From Candidatus Peregrinibacteria bacterium Gr01-1014_25 (GTDB taxonomy: Bacteria; Patescibacteriota; Gracilibacteria; Peribacterales; Peribacteraceae): 64,000 bases of DNA. Positions 29,599 to 38,259 of this stretch are shown here, one piece after another; position 1 is the first letter of the stretch, and each line of letters opens with the position of its first letter. The stretch is from assembly GCA_007376205.1 (NCBI GenBank), contig VMFU01000001.1:158661-222660 (forward strand), given 5' to 3'. Both the position numbers and the translations under genes were made by a program. The notes below the pieces were generated by a model. The model was not told the DNA's origin, made no database searches, and saw only the letters and a list, made by a program, of their open reading frames with translations.

Positions 29599-29628
29599 TT
29601 GGTGATATACCTCGAAAAATGGTACAAT
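29599..29628 (+). promoter_or_regulatory. Promoter of the coiled-coil gene
   Basis: TTGGTG (29599-29604), 18-nt spacer, TACAAT (29623-29628). The ATG at 29636 follows after 7 nt. Confidence 0.5.
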
Positions 29629-29635
29629 GGGGGGA

Positions 29636-30487
29636 ATGCCTGATGATGCGCACAAGCGGCGACAGGAAGAGCTCGCCCGCATGGCGGACCTGACGCAGAA
29701 GCTGCGGTTGGCCGAGCAGAGGCAAAGGGAAAAACGCGAGACTGAAGAAGAGGAAACACGCGAGCGCATGTCCACCTCGGTACTCGAGGAAAGCAAGGCG
29801 CAGCAGCAACGTCAGGAAGCGAAGGAGGAATGGCGGCAGGGCAAACACGCTGGCCGTCGGGCGGAAGAGAAGCAGCGTCAAGCGGCGGCGTTGCGAAGAG
29901 AACGCGAAGCTGAAGAGCAGCGCAAGCGTGACCTTGAGGAAAAGAAACGTACGCAATACATGGAGGACCTGCATCGCCGCTCATTGCAGAAGCGCGTGCG
30001 GACGCGCCAGGCGCAGGCGAAGCGCGAGGAGGAATTGACCGACCTTGCTGCCGGTGCGAGCGCTGCACGCGCTACTCGGGACATCGACGCGAAGGAACGG
30101 TCGACGCTCGGGCACTACGAAAGTGAGCGCAAGAAGCGCAAACGCCAGATCGAGATGCAACGGGACGCCCTGCTCAAGCGCGCCGATCAGGATGCACTCC
30201 TGGCGCGTAAGCTGGCGCAGCGGGAAGCGAAGGGTATGGACCTCGATCGCACCCTCGCCGATATCGAACGCGAGCGAAAGCGCGTTTCCAGCGCGGCGCA
30301 GGAAGCGTGGGAACTCGCGGACAGCGCCATCGACGCGGAGTTCAACCGTCTCGTGCAGCAGGTGAAGGCGGACGCGGCTCGCCGCCGCGCGTCCGCGGAC
30401 AAAGCCGCCTCCGACCGCACATCCCGCGCGCGGCGCAAGCGGCGCGAGACGGAGGAATGGCTAGGACTCAAGCCCTCGGATGAGTGA
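29636..30487 (+). CDS. Highly charged coiled-coil protein
   Basis: The 283 aa protein is almost entirely Arg/Lys/Glu/Gln-rich helix, predicted to be one long coiled coil, with no signal peptide, membrane segment or Cys. The closing residues (TEEWLGLKPSDE) are the only non-repetitive part. No specific family; resemblance to other coiled coils would come from composition. The start is ATG 29636, 7 nt after a -10; an ATG at 29627 overlaps that -10. tRNA-Leu follows directly. Confidence 0.75.
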   Translation: MPDDAHKRRQEELARMADLTQKLRLAEQRQREKRETEEEETRERMSTSVLEESKAQQQRQEAKEEWRQGKHAGRRAEEKQRQAAALRREREAEEQRKRDLEEKKRTQYMEDLHRRSLQKRVRTRQAQAKREEELTDLAAGASAARATRDIDAKERSTLGHYESERKKRKRQIEMQRDALLKRADQDALLARKLAQREAKGMDLDRTLADIERERKRVSSAAQEAWELADSAIDAEFNRLVQQVKADAARRRASADKAASDRTSRARRKRRETEEWLGLKPSDE

Positions 30488-30503: not shown

Positions 30504-30589
30504 GCCGAGGTGGCGAAATGGCAGACGCGCCGGCCTTAGGAGCCGGTGCCCGCAAGGGCGTAGAGGTTCAAGTCCTCTCCTCGGCACCA
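30504..30589 (+). tRNA. tRNA-Leu (anticodon UAG)
   Basis: This 86-nt class II tRNA has a 7-bp acceptor stem (GCCGAGG / CCTCGGC), discriminator A and an encoded CCA. The anticodon loop is CTTAGGA on a CCGGC/GCCGG stem, giving UAG, which reads CUN Leu codons. It has the long variable arm expected for Leu (CCC-GCAA-GGG) and a T-arm AGAGG-TTCAAGT-CCTCT. A TAGAAT -10-like box lies at 30488-30493. Confidence 0.95.
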
Positions 30590-30655: not shown

Positions 30656-32173
30656 TCAAGAAGATGCCTGTTCCTTTTTTATTTTCAGCTTTGCAATTGC
30701 AGCGTTGATGTCGGCAACTCGCGCGCCGCCGGTTTGCCCTTCGGGGTTGACGGATAGGTTGTCCAAAAGAAATTCCTTCTCCGTCGTATTCGCATTGATC
30801 CATTCTTGATAGAACGCCTTGCTGTTTTCTCCCCGTTGTTCGCGGGTCGGCATTGCGTCGCTCCTCGCACGAAGAACAGCATATCCCTTCTTGAGTTCAT
30901 CACTTGCCTCCCCCGGCTTGCGCACACTCGTGGCAGCGTCACCCGCTTTGCTGATAGCGGATCGTTGAGGAGTTTTCGCCGGCTCCTGCAGGCATTCTAC
31001 GAGCCGCTTGATCGCCTCTGGCGTTGCGCTTGAAACTGTGACGACCCAATCGGATCTGGTAAATCCCGCTTCGATCTTCATGTTTGTGTTGATGGATTGT
31101 AGATGTGGATCCGCTTTAAGATGCTTGGCGAGCGCCTGCGCTGCGTCGCGCGCATACAACGTCTTCCCGCCGCTTACGGGCAGATCGCGCATGACCATGG
31201 TGACGTCCTGCACTTGTCCTTCGCGCGCCTGACCACTCGCGGGAGTCACTTTTTCCTTGCGCGGCGCGGTGGTGTTGAGCGAGCAGATGCGATTCGGATT
31301 GTTGTTATACGCATCGATGGGGTCGCCGGTCGCTTTCGCGTCGGCCTTCTCCTTCCCTGCCGCCTGCTTGCCGGCATCGGGCCTGTTGCCCTTGCCACCG
31401 TCGCGCAGGTGGCTGCCAATGAACCGCAACCCTCCGACAAGCATGACCATGCCATACTCCAGGCGGGTCTGGGGGCGCTCCAGCGTTCCGTCCTCTTTCG
31501 GCACGACGCCATGCAGCATCATCTCGGCCTCGGCGCGCTCACGCTGCTCGGGCGTCAGCGGCGGCTTCGCCGCTATGGTGTTCTTCCACTGCTTCTGCAG
31601 TTCCGCGGGAATGGGTTCGGGTTTGTAGTCATCGATCTGTCCCGTGCGTTGGACATTCGCAGGAGCGTTTCGGGGATTTTCACCTGGCCTCCCCGATGGC
31701 ATGACCGACGTCCGCTCTCCAAGAGGAACAACTTTGCCGGTATCCAAGTCGATCTCGTCCCTTGCGATGGTGACGAATTCCACAGGCTGGTCACCAGCGC
31801 TGTGCGTTCTGCCGCCGCCCGGCCCCCGGATGTCCTGCCGATCGCCCGATTTAGGCGCCAGATGCCCTTTCTCCTCCATCGCCTTCAGCGCCTTATCCTG
31901 CTGCTCCGGTGTCATAATATCCAGGAGCGATCGCGCCATAGGCGAAGCGCGAGAGAGCATGTCCTGGCGCTGGCGGACCACATCACCTGTTTTCTGTATG
32001 CGGCTTGCGGCGGCATCGGGAACGGAGGCTATGTTCTCTTTCGCTTTTGGTTGATCCTTGGGCAGCTCCCCTTCAGGGATCTTTGGCATCTCACCTCCCG
32101 CCGCCGGGACATCCCACGCCAATCTGTGCTCGCGGTGCTCCGAAGACGCCGACGGAAAGAGGCGTGTGTACAT
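30656..32173 (-). CDS. Large protein of duplicated two-gene module, copy 2
   Basis: The 505 aa protein has a charged, Pro/Gln-rich N-terminal half and one hydrophobic segment (about 245-260, RLEYGMVMLVGGLRFIGSHL). A soluble C-terminal domain with predicted alpha/beta strands follows (QDVTMVMRDLPVSGGKTLYARDAAQALAKHLKAD). No family recognised. It resembles the protein at 32584-34626 in layout: a helix with W-K-x-[ST]-I, then a hydrophobic segment, then charged domains. The ATG at 32173 shares its A with the stop of the small upstream gene. An alternative ATG at 32089 has a strong SD (GGGAGGTGAG). Confidence 0.75.
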   Translation of the reverse strand: MYTRLFPSASSEHREHRLAWDVPAAGGEMPKIPEGELPKDQPKAKENIASVPDAAASRIQKTGDVVRQRQDMLSRASPMARSLLDIMTPEQQDKALKAMEEKGHLAPKSGDRQDIRGPGGGRTHSAGDQPVEFVTIARDEIDLDTGKVVPLGERTSVMPSGRPGENPRNAPANVQRTGQIDDYKPEPIPAELQKQWKNTIAAKPPLTPEQRERAEAEMMLHGVVPKEDGTLERPQTRLEYGMVMLVGGLRFIGSHLRDGGKGNRPDAGKQAAGKEKADAKATGDPIDAYNNNPNRICSLNTTAPRKEKVTPASGQAREGQVQDVTMVMRDLPVSGGKTLYARDAAQALAKHLKADPHLQSINTNMKIEAGFTRSDWVVTVSSATPEAIKRLVECLQEPAKTPQRSAISKAGDAATSVRKPGEASDELKKGYAVLRARSDAMPTREQRGENSKAFYQEWINANTTEKEFLLDNLSVNPEGQTGGARVADINAAIAKLKIKKEQASS

Positions 32174-32568
32174 CACGCGGGGGTCATCATGGAAGATTCG
32201 AGCGACTGCAACGTGTTACCTTCATCCTCCCGCACGATCTCCTCGAGGGAGGAGAGCAGCTCGCGCTGCATCTGGCGCGCGTACGTCGTACACGCCACTG
32301 AAAACTCCTCGAGAGCTTTGTCATAGCGCACGAAAGCTTTATCGTAGCGATCGCGCCTGGCTGCGGTCTGCGCAGGGCTCTCTTCCGTATGCCGAGCCTC
32401 TATGGATGCGATCTCCTTGGATACGAGCTCCGGATCGATCTGCGCCATGAGAATGTCGTAGATCTCCTCGGGGGTCGGCAGCGCGGGGCGCCGTGCCATG
32501 TCCTGGACGATCGCGGTGATGGCGCTGTCCACGCTCCCGCCTGCCGGTGCTGGAGTGGGAGGGGGCAT
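32173..32568 (-). CDS. Small protein of duplicated two-gene module, copy 2
   Basis: The 131 aa protein is clearly paralogous to the small protein at 34628-35005. Shared landmarks in order are PTPEEIYDILMAQIDPEL, the ESPAQTAARRDRYDKAF core and a helical C-terminus. It has a Pro/Ala-rich N-terminus, no signal peptide and no membrane helix. No known family. The stop overlaps the start of the large partner. Confidence 0.8.
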   Translation of the reverse strand: MPPPTPAPAGGSVDSAITAIVQDMARRPALPTPEEIYDILMAQIDPELVSKEIASIEARHTEESPAQTAARRDRYDKAFVRYDKALEEFSVACTTYARQMQRELLSSLEEIVREDEGNTLQSLESSMMTPA

Positions 32569-32583
32569 GGGAAAACCGTGTTG

Positions 32584-34626
32584 TTAGAACTCGTTGCGGT
32601 TCAGTGCGGCGAGTTTGTCTTTCGTTGTGTTGAATCGCTTCTTCCCGGAGTTATCGGGGTAGTTGTACTCCTCCGCGAGGATCCAGTTCCCACTGCTGCC
32701 ATCGCGGCACTTCCATTTCCCGTCAATAATGGCCACGCGGCTTTCGTTGCCGAACATCGACCGGAAGCGCCAGATGCCCTCCTTAACGTCTTTGTCCTGA
32801 ATTCTCTTGAAATCGTTGCCCGCATCGGCATCGCTCTTGGCATTCTCGACGATCTGCTCGCCCCTGCGCTTGCGGATGTCGCCGAAGGGTTCGTTGTTGA
32901 GGAGGACATTGTACGCCTTGATGGCTCCTTCCAAATTACGAAACCGCTCATTGATTCCGCCATCCCCTGTAAATTCTTTGGGGTCGGTGCCGCGGACCGC
33001 GCGCAGGATGGGACTATTGGAAACCATGCGCAGGTGCTCTTTCTCTACTTCATTCGCTTTGATCATTTCCGCGAGAGCCTGCTTCAGAACATCGGCATTC
33101 GGCTTGGCACCGGGTTTCGTGGCCGCATCGACGAGGACATCGTAGTTCCTGCGCGAGGCGTCGCTCTTGGCGCGGAGATCTTTCGCTTTGAGGAGGTTTT
33201 CGTGATTCTGAAGGTCGTTGAGTTTCTCGCCGAGGATGTGTCTGCGCGCGTCGACGGCGGCGTCCTGGGCCTGGGGGATCGACTTAAGGAATGTGAGCTC
33301 TGCATTGATGGCGTTGCGCGCTCCGGCAATCGATCCGGTCGTTGTTTGCAGCGGGGGTTCGCCTTCATATGTCTGGAGTGCCGCGGTCGTTTCCTTCAGG
33401 AGCCTATCACGCGTCTGGTCCCTGTTTTCGCCTGGCTTCTCCGTCGACTTCGGCGGTTTGTTGCCCTCGGCAGCCCCCTTCGGCGTCAGCGACTCGACTG
33501 CGGTGATCGCCTTGCGGACGGTGTCTTCCGTCGGCTTGTCGAAAACGATTTTTCCGTCCGCTTCCTTGAATTCCTTGTCTTTCTTCAGACCCTGCTTCTC
33601 CAGTTCCTTCACCAGATCCTCATTCTTGATCTTCGCGCCTTTCTTCACTTCCATCGTAAGCTTGGTGATTTCCTTCTTGCTCGCATCCCGCTCCAGTGTC
33701 ATCTGTACGGGCGCGTTGGGGTTATCGTTGAGATTCTTGATGGCTGCGTCGATGTCGACCGGCGGCTGTTCACCGGCCTTGAGAATTTTCGCGTAGCCGA
33801 TGGCCACCGCGACGAGCCGCAGCGTGCCAATCACGAGCAGGAGATTCTTCTCACGGCTCCCGCCGACGATGATCGGTTCTTTGCCTGCGATCATCGCATC
33901 GAAGTTCTGCGGTGCGCGGCATCCCGTCATCTCCATGCTGGCGATGATCGACTGTTTCCACAGCTCGCGGCGCTCCGGCGTCATCTTCTCCGGGTTACGC
34001 GCCTGGTACATGCCGCGGATGAACGTGTTGTAGTCCGGGCCTGCGACGCGAGGGGGGTATTCAAGACGACCGCTCAAGACGTTCTGTGGCGGGTAACCTG
34101 GGGCGATGCCCGGGTGGTTCGGCATGCCCGGAACGGGCATCGGGCCGACGGGCCCGGGGAATGGGGCGCCGGGAAAGCGCATAATGTGAGGCCCGCGCGG
34201 CGTCTGCATGACGGCGACGATACCGTCGGGCGCCGGGTGAAGAACGTAGAGCGGATACCGACCGCCGCTCTGCATGTGACGCATGAGGAGTTCACGGTTC
34301 GCTTTCTGGATCTCTTGGGTCATCTCCGCTCGCATGAGTTCCGGCTGACCGGCAAAACGGCTGGGGATATTGTTGTACCGATTGAGGAACTCACCTATCT
34401 CCCGCTGGAAGTTGGACGCAAGGAGCTGGTCTTGCACATCGGAAACAGCCTGAACGCGGGTGTCGACGCCCTGCTGTGGCGTAGCAAATTCCGCCGGGTG
34501 TTCTACCTGCTGTGGTTCGATGGGGGGCATTTCCCGCGGACCGGGCGCGGGCGCCTGTCCAGGACTCATGCCGCACACGCGGGCTTCCGCGGACAACCGA
34601 TAGGGAATGGGTGTATGACGCAGCAT
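32584..34626 (-). CDS. Large protein of duplicated two-gene module, copy 1
   Basis: The 680 aa protein has a Pro/Gly-rich stretch around residues 145-180 (GAPFPGPVGPMPVPGMP). A helix with RRELWKQSIIAS comes next, then a hydrophobic segment (about 257-275, NLLLVIGTLRLVAVAIGYAKIL). A long charged helical region and a compact C-terminal domain with WKCRDGSSGNWILAEEYNYPD finish it. No family recognised. The ATG follows the stop of the small partner by one nucleotide. A second start (MSPGQ, 34569) is possible. Confidence 0.75.
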   Translation of the reverse strand: MLRHTPIPYRLSAEARVCGMSPGQAPAPGPREMPPIEPQQVEHPAEFATPQQGVDTRVQAVSDVQDQLLASNFQREIGEFLNRYNNIPSRFAGQPELMRAEMTQEIQKANRELLMRHMQSGGRYPLYVLHPAPDGIVAVMQTPRGPHIMRFPGAPFPGPVGPMPVPGMPNHPGIAPGYPPQNVLSGRLEYPPRVAGPDYNTFIRGMYQARNPEKMTPERRELWKQSIIASMEMTGCRAPQNFDAMIAGKEPIIVGGSREKNLLLVIGTLRLVAVAIGYAKILKAGEQPPVDIDAAIKNLNDNPNAPVQMTLERDASKKEITKLTMEVKKGAKIKNEDLVKELEKQGLKKDKEFKEADGKIVFDKPTEDTVRKAITAVESLTPKGAAEGNKPPKSTEKPGENRDQTRDRLLKETTAALQTYEGEPPLQTTTGSIAGARNAINAELTFLKSIPQAQDAAVDARRHILGEKLNDLQNHENLLKAKDLRAKSDASRRNYDVLVDAATKPGAKPNADVLKQALAEMIKANEVEKEHLRMVSNSPILRAVRGTDPKEFTGDGGINERFRNLEGAIKAYNVLLNNEPFGDIRKRRGEQIVENAKSDADAGNDFKRIQDKDVKEGIWRFRSMFGNESRVAIIDGKWKCRDGSSGNWILAEEYNYPDNSGKKRFNTTKDKLAALNRNEF

Positions 34627-34627
34627 A

Positions 34628-35005
34628 TTAAGAGAGGAACTGGTGTTCGATGTTGGACATCGTTGCCGCCTCGCCCGTCCGGGCGCGCTCCTCCGTCGTC
34701 GCGACGACCGTACGCTGATAGGCGCGGGCCTTCTGCTCTATTTCACGACGCCATGCGCGGAACCCCTCCTCGTACGACGCAAACGCGCGCTGGTAGCGGT
34801 CGCGCCTCGCCTGCGCTTCGTCGGGGCTTTCTCCGCGATACTTGCCATCGAGGAGTGGAACTTGAGCTACTGTCAGTTCAGGCTCGATGGGCGCCATGAT
34901 CGCGTCGTAGACCTCTTCCGGAGACGGAAGGAGGAGTGGGGATGGCAGGTGAGCGAAGTAGCTTCCCTGCTGCGCGGCCTGCGTTGCGACTGGAGACGTC
35001 GTCAT
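34628..35005 (-). CDS. Small protein of duplicated two-gene module, copy 1
   Basis: The 125 aa protein has the core PSPEEVYDAIMAPIEPEL, then ESPDEAQARRDRYQRAF, then a Glu/Arg-rich helix. It aligns with the product of 32173-32568 over most of its length. The ATG at 35005 is preferred because a good promoter (35029-35057) begins transcription just upstream; the longer frame to 35068 would run through it. First gene of a four-gene unit. Confidence 0.8.
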   Translation of the reverse strand: MTTSPVATQAAQQGSYFAHLPSPLLLPSPEEVYDAIMAPIEPELTVAQVPLLDGKYRGESPDEAQARRDRYQRAFASYEEGFRAWRREIEQKARAYQRTVVATTEERARTGEAATMSNIEHQFLS

Positions 35006-35079: not shown

Positions 35080-38000
35080 CTACGCCGCTTTTTTGGCTTT
35101 TCCTTCTTTCTTGTGAATGAGGGCCACATGCGCCGCGAGGGCCATTACCTCATCCCCGTTTTCCGCATCTTTTTTCAGCTCCACTTCGGCAATCCGCAGA
35201 GTATTGCTAGAAATACGCCATTGCGGGTGACCTTGGAGAAGCGGCATCAGGTGCTCGGCCGTCACGCGCGGGTGGAGCGTAAGCACGATGTCACGCGGAC
35301 GGACGGCGTTCGCATGCACCAGAGGGCCGGTTTCCTCGGCTTTCACCCGTAGCACGCCTGCGCGGCGGCAGGCGAGCTTGAGCCGCAGAACGCTGAAGAG
35401 GTTGCGAACCTGACGCGGCGGCTCGCCGTACTCCGCCTGCAGATCGCCTTCGAACTCGGCGAGGATGGCCTCATCCTCACTGCCCGCGAGTTTCTGGTAC
35501 ACGGCGATACGTTCATCGCTGTCGGGAATGTAGAACGACGGCAGGAGCGCCTCGACGGGGAGGAGGATTTCGATCGCCTGTTCGATGTCGGCCTCCTCGC
35601 GCTTGCCGGCACGCAGCTCCTCCACGGCATTCTTCAGCATGCGCAGGTAGTGGCTCACGCCGACGGTCTGCATGGTTCCCGACTGGTTGGCACCGAGGAT
35701 TTCGCCCGCACCGCGGATTTCCAGATCGCGCATGGCCACCTGGAAGCCGCTGCCGAGTTCGCACGCCTCGACGATCGCGCGCAGACGCTTCTTCGCGTCC
35801 TCCGGCAGTTTCTGCGAGTGGTAGAGGAGAAACGCGAACGCCTGGACCTTGCCGCGACCGACGCGGCCGCGCAGCTGGTAGAGCTGCGACAGTCCGAAGC
35901 GCTCGGCTTCGTTGACGATGAGCGTGTTCGCGCGCGGGAGGTCGATCCCGTTCTCGATGATCGTGGAGCTGACGAGGACGTCGTAGGCGCCATCCTTGAA
36001 CTCCAGGATGCGTTGCTCCAGGTCGTCCGGACTAAGCTGGCCGTGCGCGACGATGAAGCGCGCCTCGGGCACAAGCACACGGAGTTTTTCCGCGAACGCG
36101 TCGATCGTCTCGACGCGGTTGTGGAGGACGAAGCATTGCCCCTTCCGCTTGGTCTCGGCAAGAATCGCCTGGCGAACAAGGTCATCGGAGTACTTGCGCA
36201 CCTCGGTGATGATGGGGAGGCGGCCAGGAGGCGGCGTGGTGATCGTCGTGATATCGCGCAACTTGTGCAATCCGAGGTTGAGCGTGCGCGGGATGGGTGT
36301 CGCTGTGAGCGTCAGGATGTCAACGGATGCGCGTAATTCCTTGAAACGCTCTTTCTGCTTTACGCCGAAACGCTGCTCTTCATCGATGATGACAAGCCCT
36401 AAATTGTGGAATACGACATCCGGCTGGAGGAGTCGGTGCGTGCCGATGACGATGTGAACATCACCCTTGCGCAGTCCTTCCAGAATCACCTTCTGCTCCT
36501 TAGGCGTGCGGAAGCGACTAAGCATCTCGATGCGCAGGGGAAAGTCTTTCATGCGCTCATGGAACGTCCGCTCGTGCTGGTCCGCCAGGATGGTAATCGG
36601 GGCGATGACGGCAACTTGCTTCCCCGCCTGCGCGGCTTTGAACGCGGCGCGCATCGCAACTTCGGTTTTCCCGAACCCGACGTCGCCGCACACGAGACGG
36701 TCCATGGGGCGGTCGTCCTCCATATCGCCCTTGATGTCCTCGATCGCCTTCTCTTGCCCGGGTGTCGGGGCGTAGGGGAATGTCGCCTCAAACTTGCGCA
36801 TCGCGTCGCTGTCCAGGGGGTATGCGTGCCCTTTGGCACTCGCACGTTTCGCATACAGCGCGAGGAGTTCGCGAGCGACCTCCTCCGTCTCCTGCTTGAG
36901 ACGCTCGGTGACACGCTTCCATTCGCTGCCGCCCAGTCTCGTCAGGGCGGGGTCCTTCCCCTCTTCATGAACGTACTTGCTCAATTTATCCGCCTGGTCG
37001 ACGGGGATGAACAGCTTGTCCCCCTCGGCGTAGTGGAGTTCCAGATACTCACGGAGCGTGCCATCCACGAGCTTCTGGGTCGTGCCGATGAAGCGGCCGA
37101 TCCCGTGTTCCATGTGCACGACGTAATCCCCAGGCGCCAGGGACGTCAGAAAGTCGAGTGCAAGCTTCTGGACGCTGCGCTGCTTCCCCGCTTTGCGCAG
37201 CGTGAATATTTCGCGGTCCGTGAGCAGAGCGCACTTTAAATCGGGGTTCTGGATGGAGTGCGGCAGGAGCGACTCTTCATCCGCAGAGATAACCGTGACT
37301 CCGCGGTGCGCGGCTTTCTCGGCGCCGAGGACGAACGGAATATGTTCCTCGCGGAAGATCCCGGCCAGCTCTTCACTCCGGCGGCTGACGATGAGAAGGT
37401 TCCAGTCCTGCTGGATTTTGTCGCGCAGATCGTTGAGGAAGTCCGTCAATGTGTAGAATTTAATGACGGAGAGGTAGCGCACGTGCATGTGCCCGCGGGC
37501 GGACTCCGGGAACGCCGTAAACCGCAAGATACGGGTATCTTTGGGATCGGGGACATCGTCCTCATCGTCAATGACCAGCACGGACTCCTCCGGAAGTTGC
37601 GCTGAAAGCGGACGGGCTGCCGTCGCGTTGGCTGGGAAAATTTCCAGCGACGTTTTCTTCCCGCCAGATATGTCCTGAATTGCTTCTACGCGATCGAAGT
37701 GGAACGACACACGCCAGACGTGCGACTCCTGGATGGGGTGGATGTCGAGGACGTCGCCCGTGCGACGGTACTGGCCGGGTTGGATATCGCGGTCCTCGGC
37801 ATGGGCGTAACCGAGATCGAGCAGCTGTTCGACGAACGCCGTGAACGCGATCTCCTCACCCGTTTTGATCGTCGCCATTCTTCTCGTCAGCTCATGAAAA
37901 TCCGGCACCTCGACTTCCCACGCGTCGCGCGGGAGGAGGAACACTCCGCCGTCACCGCGCAGGATGGATAGGACCGCGGGATGCACGACGCTCGCATCAT

Positions 38001-38259
38001 CGACTCGTTCAATGGGGGTGGTGCGGACTGGACATTCGAAGAAGTGCAACCAATGGCGCCACGCCTCAACTTCTTCGCTACTGCGCGTGAGGATGACCGA
38101 CGATGGGAATGCTGGTGGGTTGAGCGACCGTACGTGTTCGAAGACGAGCGCTTTCGCCGTTTGGTTGGCGGCGCCGGACACGGTGAGGTGGCCCTCCTTG
38201 CGGAAGAGCTGACTCATATCCCGATGTGTATCCTCACCAATGAGGAGTGAGGGCTTCAT
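35080..38259 (-). CDS. mfd: Transcription-repair coupling factor Mfd
   Basis: This 1059 aa DNA translocase removes stalled RNA polymerase and recruits UvrA. The N-terminal UvrB-like domains (about 1-330) are followed by the CarD-like RNA polymerase interaction domain (PGDYVVHMEHGIGRFIG). RecG-like helicase motifs come next: Walker A CGDVGFGKTE, Walker B IIDEEQRFGV, and LTATPIPRTL. The VGRGKVQAFAFLLY region and a C-terminal D7 domain complete it. Length is slightly below E. coli Mfd (about 1150), mainly in the N-terminal region. Confidence 0.96.
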   Translation of the reverse strand: MKPSLLIGEDTHRDMSQLFRKEGHLTVSGAANQTAKALVFEHVRSLNPPAFPSSVILTRSSEEVEAWRHWLHFFECPVRTTPIERVDDASVVHPAVLSILRGDGGVFLLPRDAWEVEVPDFHELTRRMATIKTGEEIAFTAFVEQLLDLGYAHAEDRDIQPGQYRRTGDVLDIHPIQESHVWRVSFHFDRVEAIQDISGGKKTSLEIFPANATAARPLSAQLPEESVLVIDDEDDVPDPKDTRILRFTAFPESARGHMHVRYLSVIKFYTLTDFLNDLRDKIQQDWNLLIVSRRSEELAGIFREEHIPFVLGAEKAAHRGVTVISADEESLLPHSIQNPDLKCALLTDREIFTLRKAGKQRSVQKLALDFLTSLAPGDYVVHMEHGIGRFIGTTQKLVDGTLREYLELHYAEGDKLFIPVDQADKLSKYVHEEGKDPALTRLGGSEWKRVTERLKQETEEVARELLALYAKRASAKGHAYPLDSDAMRKFEATFPYAPTPGQEKAIEDIKGDMEDDRPMDRLVCGDVGFGKTEVAMRAAFKAAQAGKQVAVIAPITILADQHERTFHERMKDFPLRIEMLSRFRTPKEQKVILEGLRKGDVHIVIGTHRLLQPDVVFHNLGLVIIDEEQRFGVKQKERFKELRASVDILTLTATPIPRTLNLGLHKLRDITTITTPPPGRLPIITEVRKYSDDLVRQAILAETKRKGQCFVLHNRVETIDAFAEKLRVLVPEARFIVAHGQLSPDDLEQRILEFKDGAYDVLVSSTIIENGIDLPRANTLIVNEAERFGLSQLYQLRGRVGRGKVQAFAFLLYHSQKLPEDAKKRLRAIVEACELGSGFQVAMRDLEIRGAGEILGANQSGTMQTVGVSHYLRMLKNAVEELRAGKREEADIEQAIEILLPVEALLPSFYIPDSDERIAVYQKLAGSEDEAILAEFEGDLQAEYGEPPRQVRNLFSVLRLKLACRRAGVLRVKAEETGPLVHANAVRPRDIVLTLHPRVTAEHLMPLLQGHPQWRISSNTLRIAEVELKKDAENGDEVMALAAHVALIHKKEGKAKKAA

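What the first reader, a model, noticed from the sequence alone, without database searches (positions are those of the whole stretch)
30656..35005. Tandemly duplicated two-gene module (small + large) of unknown function
The small proteins at 34628-35005 and 32173-32568 are clear paralogues (shared PTPEE[IV]YD.IMA.I[DE]PEL and ESP..A.ARRDRY..AF cores). Each is followed directly by a large protein with one central hydrophobic segment and charged flanks. The pair is therefore duplicated as a unit, with diverged large partners. A conserved small/large pair repeated in tandem under one promoter looks like a functional two-component apparatus, and I know of no described counterpart.
Basis: partly seen in the sequence, partly recalled or inferred. 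Interest (0 to 1): 0.75.

Follow-up and report, generated by a model that had tools for sequence, protein, structure and literature searches.

The report
Small helper gene with tagged partners
In one family of ultra-small bacteria (Peribacteraceae), a conserved small helical protein is made next to large, very fast-changing proteins that share only a short N-terminal tag, which looks like an undescribed address-label-and-escort system for protein sorting.

Summary
The two small proteins are clear paralogues (35% identity, E=9e-24), each followed within 1 nt by a large ORF. The two large proteins match only remotely. The window is Candidatus Peribacteria-like. The small family occurs in 67 of 74 genomes of its family, usually 1-4 copies. 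In 380 genomes across the phylum only same-family genomes match, apart from one marginal hit.

The large partners share a short N-terminal tag: Met, 5-25 F/H/R/S-rich residues, then E-x-R-[L/M]-[L/I/C/V]. A P/A/E-rich linker follows, then bodies with little or no similarity. All six Arg codons are used, so selection acts on the protein. The tag also marks other large proteins with no small gene beside them, two of them in this genome. Small-protein similarity and cargo similarity covary between genera (p=5e-5), so the pairs look cognate. At the conserved position beside mfd, mfd, small and cargo fall from 90% to 78% to 35% identity.

Best reading: the tag is a sorting or export label and the small protein a cognate chaperone or adaptor. 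Export is inferred. An AlphaFold small+tag fusion showed no docking. No Pfam, NCBIfam, PDB-fold or literature counterpart was found.

The parts
34628..35005 (-). small1: 125-aa helical protein, first gene of the four-gene cluster, 74 nt downstream of mfd
   Evidence: AF2 of the family via small2 alignment, pLDDT 91
32584..34626 (-). large1: 680-aa tagged partner (cargo) of small1
   Evidence: no homologue by single-sequence search in 73 other genomes
34570..34626 (-). N-terminal tag of large1, MLRHTPIPYRLSAEARVCG (core E14-A-R16-V-C)
   Evidence: own-genome six-frame profile hit E=0.0036
33784..33840 (-). hydrophobic stretch of large1, residues 263-281
   Evidence: Kyte-Doolittle 1.87
32173..32568 (-). 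small2: 131-aa paralogue of small1
   Evidence: AF2 helices 13-25, 33-44, 50-59 and one 64-residue helix 65-128
30656..32173 (-). large2: 505-aa tagged partner (cargo) of small2; ATG shares one base with the small2 stop TGA
   Evidence: no homologue in 73 other genomes; remote match to large1
32114..32173 (-). N-terminal tag of large2, MYTRLFPSASSEHREHRLAW (core E15-H-R17-L-A-W)
   Evidence: own-genome profile hit E=3.6e-5
31406..31462 (-). weak hydrophobic stretch of large2, residues 238-256
   Evidence: Kyte-Doolittle 1.04
35080..38259 (-). mfd (transcription-repair coupling factor), conserved upstream neighbour of the module; context, not part of it
   Evidence: translation; 19 small genes lie within 1.5 kb downstream of mfd, 17 loci within 0.8 kb

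Best explanation
The module is a sorting unit: a cognate small helper plus a tagged cargo. Shown by sequence: (1) the large proteins carry a short N-terminal tag, Met + 5-25 residues rich in F/H/R/S/C and poor in K/D/E, then E-x-R-[LM]-[LICV], then a P/A/E-rich acidic linker; (2) the tag is constrained at protein level while the bodies are hypervariable; (3) the small all-helical protein is encoded immediately upstream and covaries with its cargo; (4) the tag also marks large proteins with no small gene beside them. Inferred: the tag is an address label read by a machinery common to all tagged proteins (most likely export to the envelope or outside), while the small protein is a dedicated chaperone or adaptor, made just before its cargo, that keeps the long cargo competent or delivers it. 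Cargo bodies then act outside or at the surface, which would explain their rapid divergence at a fixed locus.
For: Tag: E and R are in at least 90% of rows of a 55-protein alignment whose mean column identity is 7%. E-x-R-[LM]-[LICV] occurs in 57/68 N-termini against 2/1704 body chunks of 26 aa; all six Arg codons and both Glu codons are used; pre-tag F 5x, H 8x, R 2x over body (the 68 include proteins found by the tag, so 57/68 is not an unbiased rate). Strict tag in the ORF starting at the small gene's stop: 36/57 against 1.1% at random positions. A six-frame profile search of whole genomes lands mainly on N-termini of long ORFs. Tag without a small gene. Coupling -8 to +21 nt in 54/57. Cognate covariation with same-genus pairs excluded, p=5e-5. 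Small family in 67/74 family genomes, and among 380 phylum genomes only same-family ones plus one marginal hit. Divergence beside mfd: 90% mfd, 78% small, 35% cargo in two congeners. Cargo bodies are poor in Cys (0.18%, mfd orthologues 0.53%) and mostly lack strong transmembrane segments. Large cargo types include a HELTH metallopeptidase-like protein and a J-domain protein.
Against: No direct evidence of export: the tag has no hydrophobic core and no signal-peptide match was found. No transport machine was linked to the module. AF2 of a natural in-frame read-through fusion (small + tag, L035) gave tag pLDDT 53-57, so no confident docking (shallow alignment). Small proteins are as Cys-poor as cargo (0.23%), so Cys depletion is weak evidence. 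Tagged proteins exist in family genomes where no small gene was detected (G014, G001), so the small is not required for every tagged protein.
Confidence: 0.45

Rival explanations
1. Cytoplasmic assembly module: the tag is a docking peptide that recruits large coiled-coil or disordered proteins to an internal scaffold or inclusion, with the small helical protein as the scaffold or co-assembly factor.
For: Cargo are rich in A/K/E/Q and helical or coiled-coil like (weak SMC, Rad50, filament-type matches); no signal peptide and no strong TM; one cargo carries a J domain; the small is mostly one 64-residue helix.
Against: Hypervariable bodies at a conserved locus are unexpected for an internal scaffold; no tag docking in the AF2 fusion.
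Confidence: 0.25
2. The tag is the Peribacterial form of the LEPR-type N-terminal motif (E-x-R-x-L-L, LEER/LEPR...DGA) seen on giant secreted or repetitive proteins of Planctomycetes and Proteobacteria, so the cargo are ordinary members of that class with an added small chaperone.
For: Same spacing and chemistry (e.g. KERRLIFDGPQ, KEQRLIFDGGAAAP); a family genome also holds a canonical MKSRDYIPSFEQLEERTLMDAAP N-terminus scoring above the NCBIfam LEPR-8K cut-off (L177); LEPR-XLL is reported at the N-terminus of a giant RTX protein (PMC10868602).
Against: The NCBIfam LEPR-8K model scores none of the tags and the tag profile ranks the L177 motif 170th of 1589 N-termini, 1.3 bits; NCBIfam has no LEPR hit on tag peptides.
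Confidence: 0.15
3. Effector-immunity or toxin-antitoxin operon: the upstream small protein neutralises a large toxic partner.
For: Small-upstream, large-downstream order, cognate covariation, hypervariable large partner, one tagged protein with a HELTH metallopeptidase-like region.
Against: No toxin domain in the window proteins or most others; tagged proteins without the small gene are common; the small family is conserved rather than hypervariable as immunity genes usually are.
Confidence: 0.1
4. Type VII (ESX/LXG-Lap-like) or contractile-injection cargo system using the small protein as a targeting partner.
For: Lap-like gene layout (small helical gene before a large effector); weak WXG100/ESAT-6 hits in single small proteins; eCIS_core-like region in one tagged protein.
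Against: No contractile sheath in 72 related genomes, with working controls; no WXG100 over cut-off in 18 genomes; the small fold is three short helices plus one long helix, not a WXG hairpin, with no PDB match.
Confidence: 0.05

Closest known systems
LEPR-XLL / LEPR-8K type N-terminal motif of giant repetitive proteins (NCBIfam NF012209)
   Same: Short E-x-R-hydrophobic motif near the N-terminus of long, otherwise unrelated proteins; several tags continue F-D-G as in LEPRILFDG-type motifs (last point from memory).
   Different: Not matched by the NCBIfam model; no proline after E; F/H/R-rich leader; many bodies under 1000 aa without repeats; cognate small helical gene upstream; restricted to Peribacteraceae.
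Type III secretion chaperone-effector pairs (CesT/SycE class; general knowledge)
   Same: Small conserved partner encoded next to a diverse large partner whose recognition signal is N-terminal.
   Different: The small protein is an elongated helix without the alpha/beta chaperone fold; no PDB match; no type III apparatus sought or seen here.
T7SSb Lap/LXG modules (general knowledge)
   Same: Small helical protein gene directly upstream of a large partner with a shared N-terminal targeting region.
   Different: No WXG100 over cut-off; the shared region is about 20 aa and not a helical LXG domain.
PEP-CTERM / GlyGly-CTERM sorting signals (PMC1569441, PMC3237569; abstracts seen)
   Same: Lineage-limited short tag shared by otherwise unrelated proteins, recognised by comparative genomics.
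   Different: N-terminal here, no transmembrane segment, tied to a cognate helper gene; processing enzyme unknown.

Membership tests
LEPR-XLL / LEPR-8K (NF012209) | Match to the curated 24-position model at the N-terminus | tested here: not met
   None of the model's hits in 10 Peribacteraceae genomes falls on a tag position; tag peptides have no LEPR hit in NCBIfam
LEPR-XLL / LEPR-8K (NF012209) | E-x-R followed by hydrophobics near the N-terminus of a long protein | tested here: met
Type VII secretion WXG100/LXG-Lap | WXG100-family protein present and small protein a WXG hairpin | tested here: not met
   0 of 18 genomes over the PF06013 cut-off; AF2 shows one long helix plus three short
Extracellular contractile injection system | Contractile sheath protein in the genome | tested here: not met
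   PF04984 absent in 72 genomes, controls positive
Type III secretion chaperone | CesT/SycE-like fold | tested here: not met
   all-helical model, no PDB fold match with E<=0.001
Type III secretion chaperone | Binding of the small protein to the N-terminus of its partner | tested here: inconclusive
   AF2 read-through fusion: tag pLDDT 53-57, no confident docking
Toxin-antitoxin / effector-immunity | Toxic activity of the large partner neutralised by the small | not testable with these tools
   no toxin domain found
Type I secretion (RTX) substrate | ABC exporter with membrane-fusion and outer-membrane partners, C-terminal RTX signal | not tested
   genome-wide exporter search not run

The most novel reading that the evidence does not exclude
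Peribacteraceae use a previously undescribed protein-sorting route in which a non-hydrophobic N-terminal E-x-R-L tag addresses a panel of large, rapidly evolving effector or surface proteins to a dedicated machine, with cognate small helical chaperones co-translated upstream.
Probability: 0.35. Interest if true: 0.85.

Novelty: new variant of a known kind. Interest (0 to 1): 0.62.

Why it matters
Patescibacteria are thought to live attached to or dependent on other cells, yet few of their tools for acting on partners are known. A tag shared by otherwise unrelated proteins would let one list a putative exported or effector repertoire directly from sequence in a whole family, including proteins that no database recognises. 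If the tag is an export label, it is a non-hydrophobic N-terminal signal with a cognate helper, which is unusual outside injection systems, and its receptor becomes a definite target to look for.

Tried and rejected
Pfam, NCBIfam and PDB searches of the window proteins and relatives: nothing specific. PDB fold search with the small-protein model: nothing. Contractile injection, prompted by an eCIS_core-like hit in L158: no sheath genes. Type VII secretion: no WXG100 over cut-off. LEPR-XLL membership: not met, kept as an analogy. Small protein in phages and viral contigs: none. AF2 of a natural in-frame read-through fusion to see docking of the tag: no docking. A shared cargo core domain was found in seven cargo of other genera, but the window proteins do not join it above decoys. 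Cargo length does not track small similarity (Spearman 0). One search used a small2 query with a few mistyped N-terminal letters; repeat the point with correct sequences.

Full report
WHAT IS THERE. The four reported genes exist on the minus strand. They lie 74 nt downstream of mfd, convergent with a tRNA-Leu (30504-30589). Gene gaps are 1 nt, 15 nt and a 1-nt overlap, an operon-like layout. A consensus promoter or a strong terminator is not demonstrated. The two small proteins are unmistakable paralogues (35% identity over 100 ungapped residues, E=9e-24). The two large proteins are not detectably similar by BLASTP, but a collinear Smith-Waterman alignment scores about 5 s.d. above local-composition shuffles, and large2 is the best match of large1 among about 60 comparable proteins (the reverse search ranks third). 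I take remote homology as likely but not proven.

WHO HAS IT. Close relatives in named records are Candidatus Peribacteria / Peregrinibacteria. The genome (1.12 Mb) has three small copies: the two here and one on another contig, also followed by a tagged protein. The small family is present in 67 of 74 genomes of the same family, commonly 1-4 copies. A profile built from 57 members finds, among 380 genomes across the phylum, only same-family genomes plus one marginal hit (E=0.001). It is absent from phage records and viral contigs at the sensitivity used.

THE TAG. Of 57 small genes in 41 loci, 54 have an assigned downstream ORF starting between -8 and +21 nt of the small stop codon. These partners, mostly 147-1750 aa, have almost nothing in common except their first 15-30 residues: Met, a leader rich in F, H, R, S and C and poor in K, D and E, then E-x-R-[LM]-[LICV], often followed by F or F-D-G, then a P/A/E-rich acidic linker. 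In a MAFFT alignment of 55 complete proteins with 7% mean column identity, this Glu and Arg are among only four columns conserved in at least 90% of rows. Codons at these positions are free (two Glu codons, all six Arg codons), so the constraint is on the protein. A strict form of the motif follows 36/57 small genes but only 1.1% of random positions. Both window proteins carry relaxed forms (EARVCG, EHRLAW) and are found by the tag profile in a six-frame search of their own genome at E=0.0036 and 3.6e-5 (both are among the 48 sequences of the profile).

THE TAG IS NOT CONFINED TO PAIRS. Unconstrained six-frame searches with the 26-residue profile land mainly 5-25 residues after the start codon of long ORFs, many without a small gene nearby. 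Examples are two proteins of 419 and 429 aa in this genome (L168, L169), a 1308-aa protein with a HELTH metallopeptidase-like region and a weak eCIS_core match (L158), and a 3557-aa giant (L064). Strong tags also occur in two family genomes in which no small gene was found (G014, G001). Genomes outside the family give only weak hits (best E=0.0025).

COGNATE PAIRS AND FAST CARGO EVOLUTION. Cargo bodies that resemble each other tend to have similar small partners even when same-genus comparisons are excluded (mean small identity 37% against 30%, permutation p=5e-5). One supported clade of seven small proteins from several genera has only short cargo (147-215 aa). A small gene sits downstream of mfd in 17 of the loci compared. 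There the neighbour mfd, the small and the cargo diverge at very different rates (90%, 78%, 35% in two congeners; medians 70%, 33%, 26%). The window's cargo have no single-sequence homologue in 73 other genomes.

STRUCTURE. AlphaFold2 predicts the small protein with high confidence (pLDDT 91) as three short helices and one 64-residue helix; no solved fold matches. A natural in-frame read-through of small and tag (L035) folds the small as before, but the tag stays at pLDDT 53-57, so there is no structural support for direct docking. The test is weak because few paired sequences were available.

MECHANISM. Shown: pairing, coupling, tag, protein-level constraint, cognate covariation, tagged proteins without the small. 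Inferred: the tag is an address label read by a common machine; the small is a cognate chaperone or adaptor; the destination is the envelope or beyond. Rapid cargo divergence, the rarity of transmembrane segments and low Cys (0.18%) fit this, but the small proteins are equally Cys-poor and no export machine is linked. Rivals are a cytoplasmic scaffold, a LEPR-type secreted class, effector-immunity, and type VII or contractile injection; the last two machines were tested and not found.

KNOWN RELATIVES. The tag resembles the LEPR-XLL motif at the N-terminus of giant proteins (PMC10868602), but the NCBIfam model does not recognise it and the tag profile does not recognise a canonical LEER motif from a relative. 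I therefore file it as working like an N-terminal sorting motif with a helper, not as a member of that family.

Noticed in passing
L048:2011-5526 (-): Tagged 1172-aa cargo ends in a J domain (DnaJ, residues 1120-1169, E=1.7e-9).
   Followed up: partly
L158:3547-7470 (-): Tagged 1308-aa protein without a small gene in the 16-kb locus; HELTH motif within a weak eCIS_core match.
   Followed up: partly
L064:959-11632 (-): 3557-aa tagged protein directly after the cargo of a small gene; weak DUF6861 match (E=1.3e-5, below curated cut-off).
   Followed up: partly
L177 (G038:C18:166442): Canonical LEER-type N-terminus MKSRDYIPSFEQLEERTLMDAAP on a Peribacterial protein with three similar repeats (KFYNKDGRYYENDVVSGSKWFQSGLDDQWF).
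   Followed up: partly
window 29627-30487 (+): 286-aa highly charged, coiled-coil-like protein between aspS and tRNA-Leu, no Pfam match.
   Followed up: no
window 32389-34899 (+): 836-aa open frame antisense to large1/small1, a by-product of high GC; likely spurious.
   Followed up: no
L043, L067, L061: Cargo of related genomes share repeated C-terminal units (about 27-34% identity between L061 and L043/L067).
   Followed up: no
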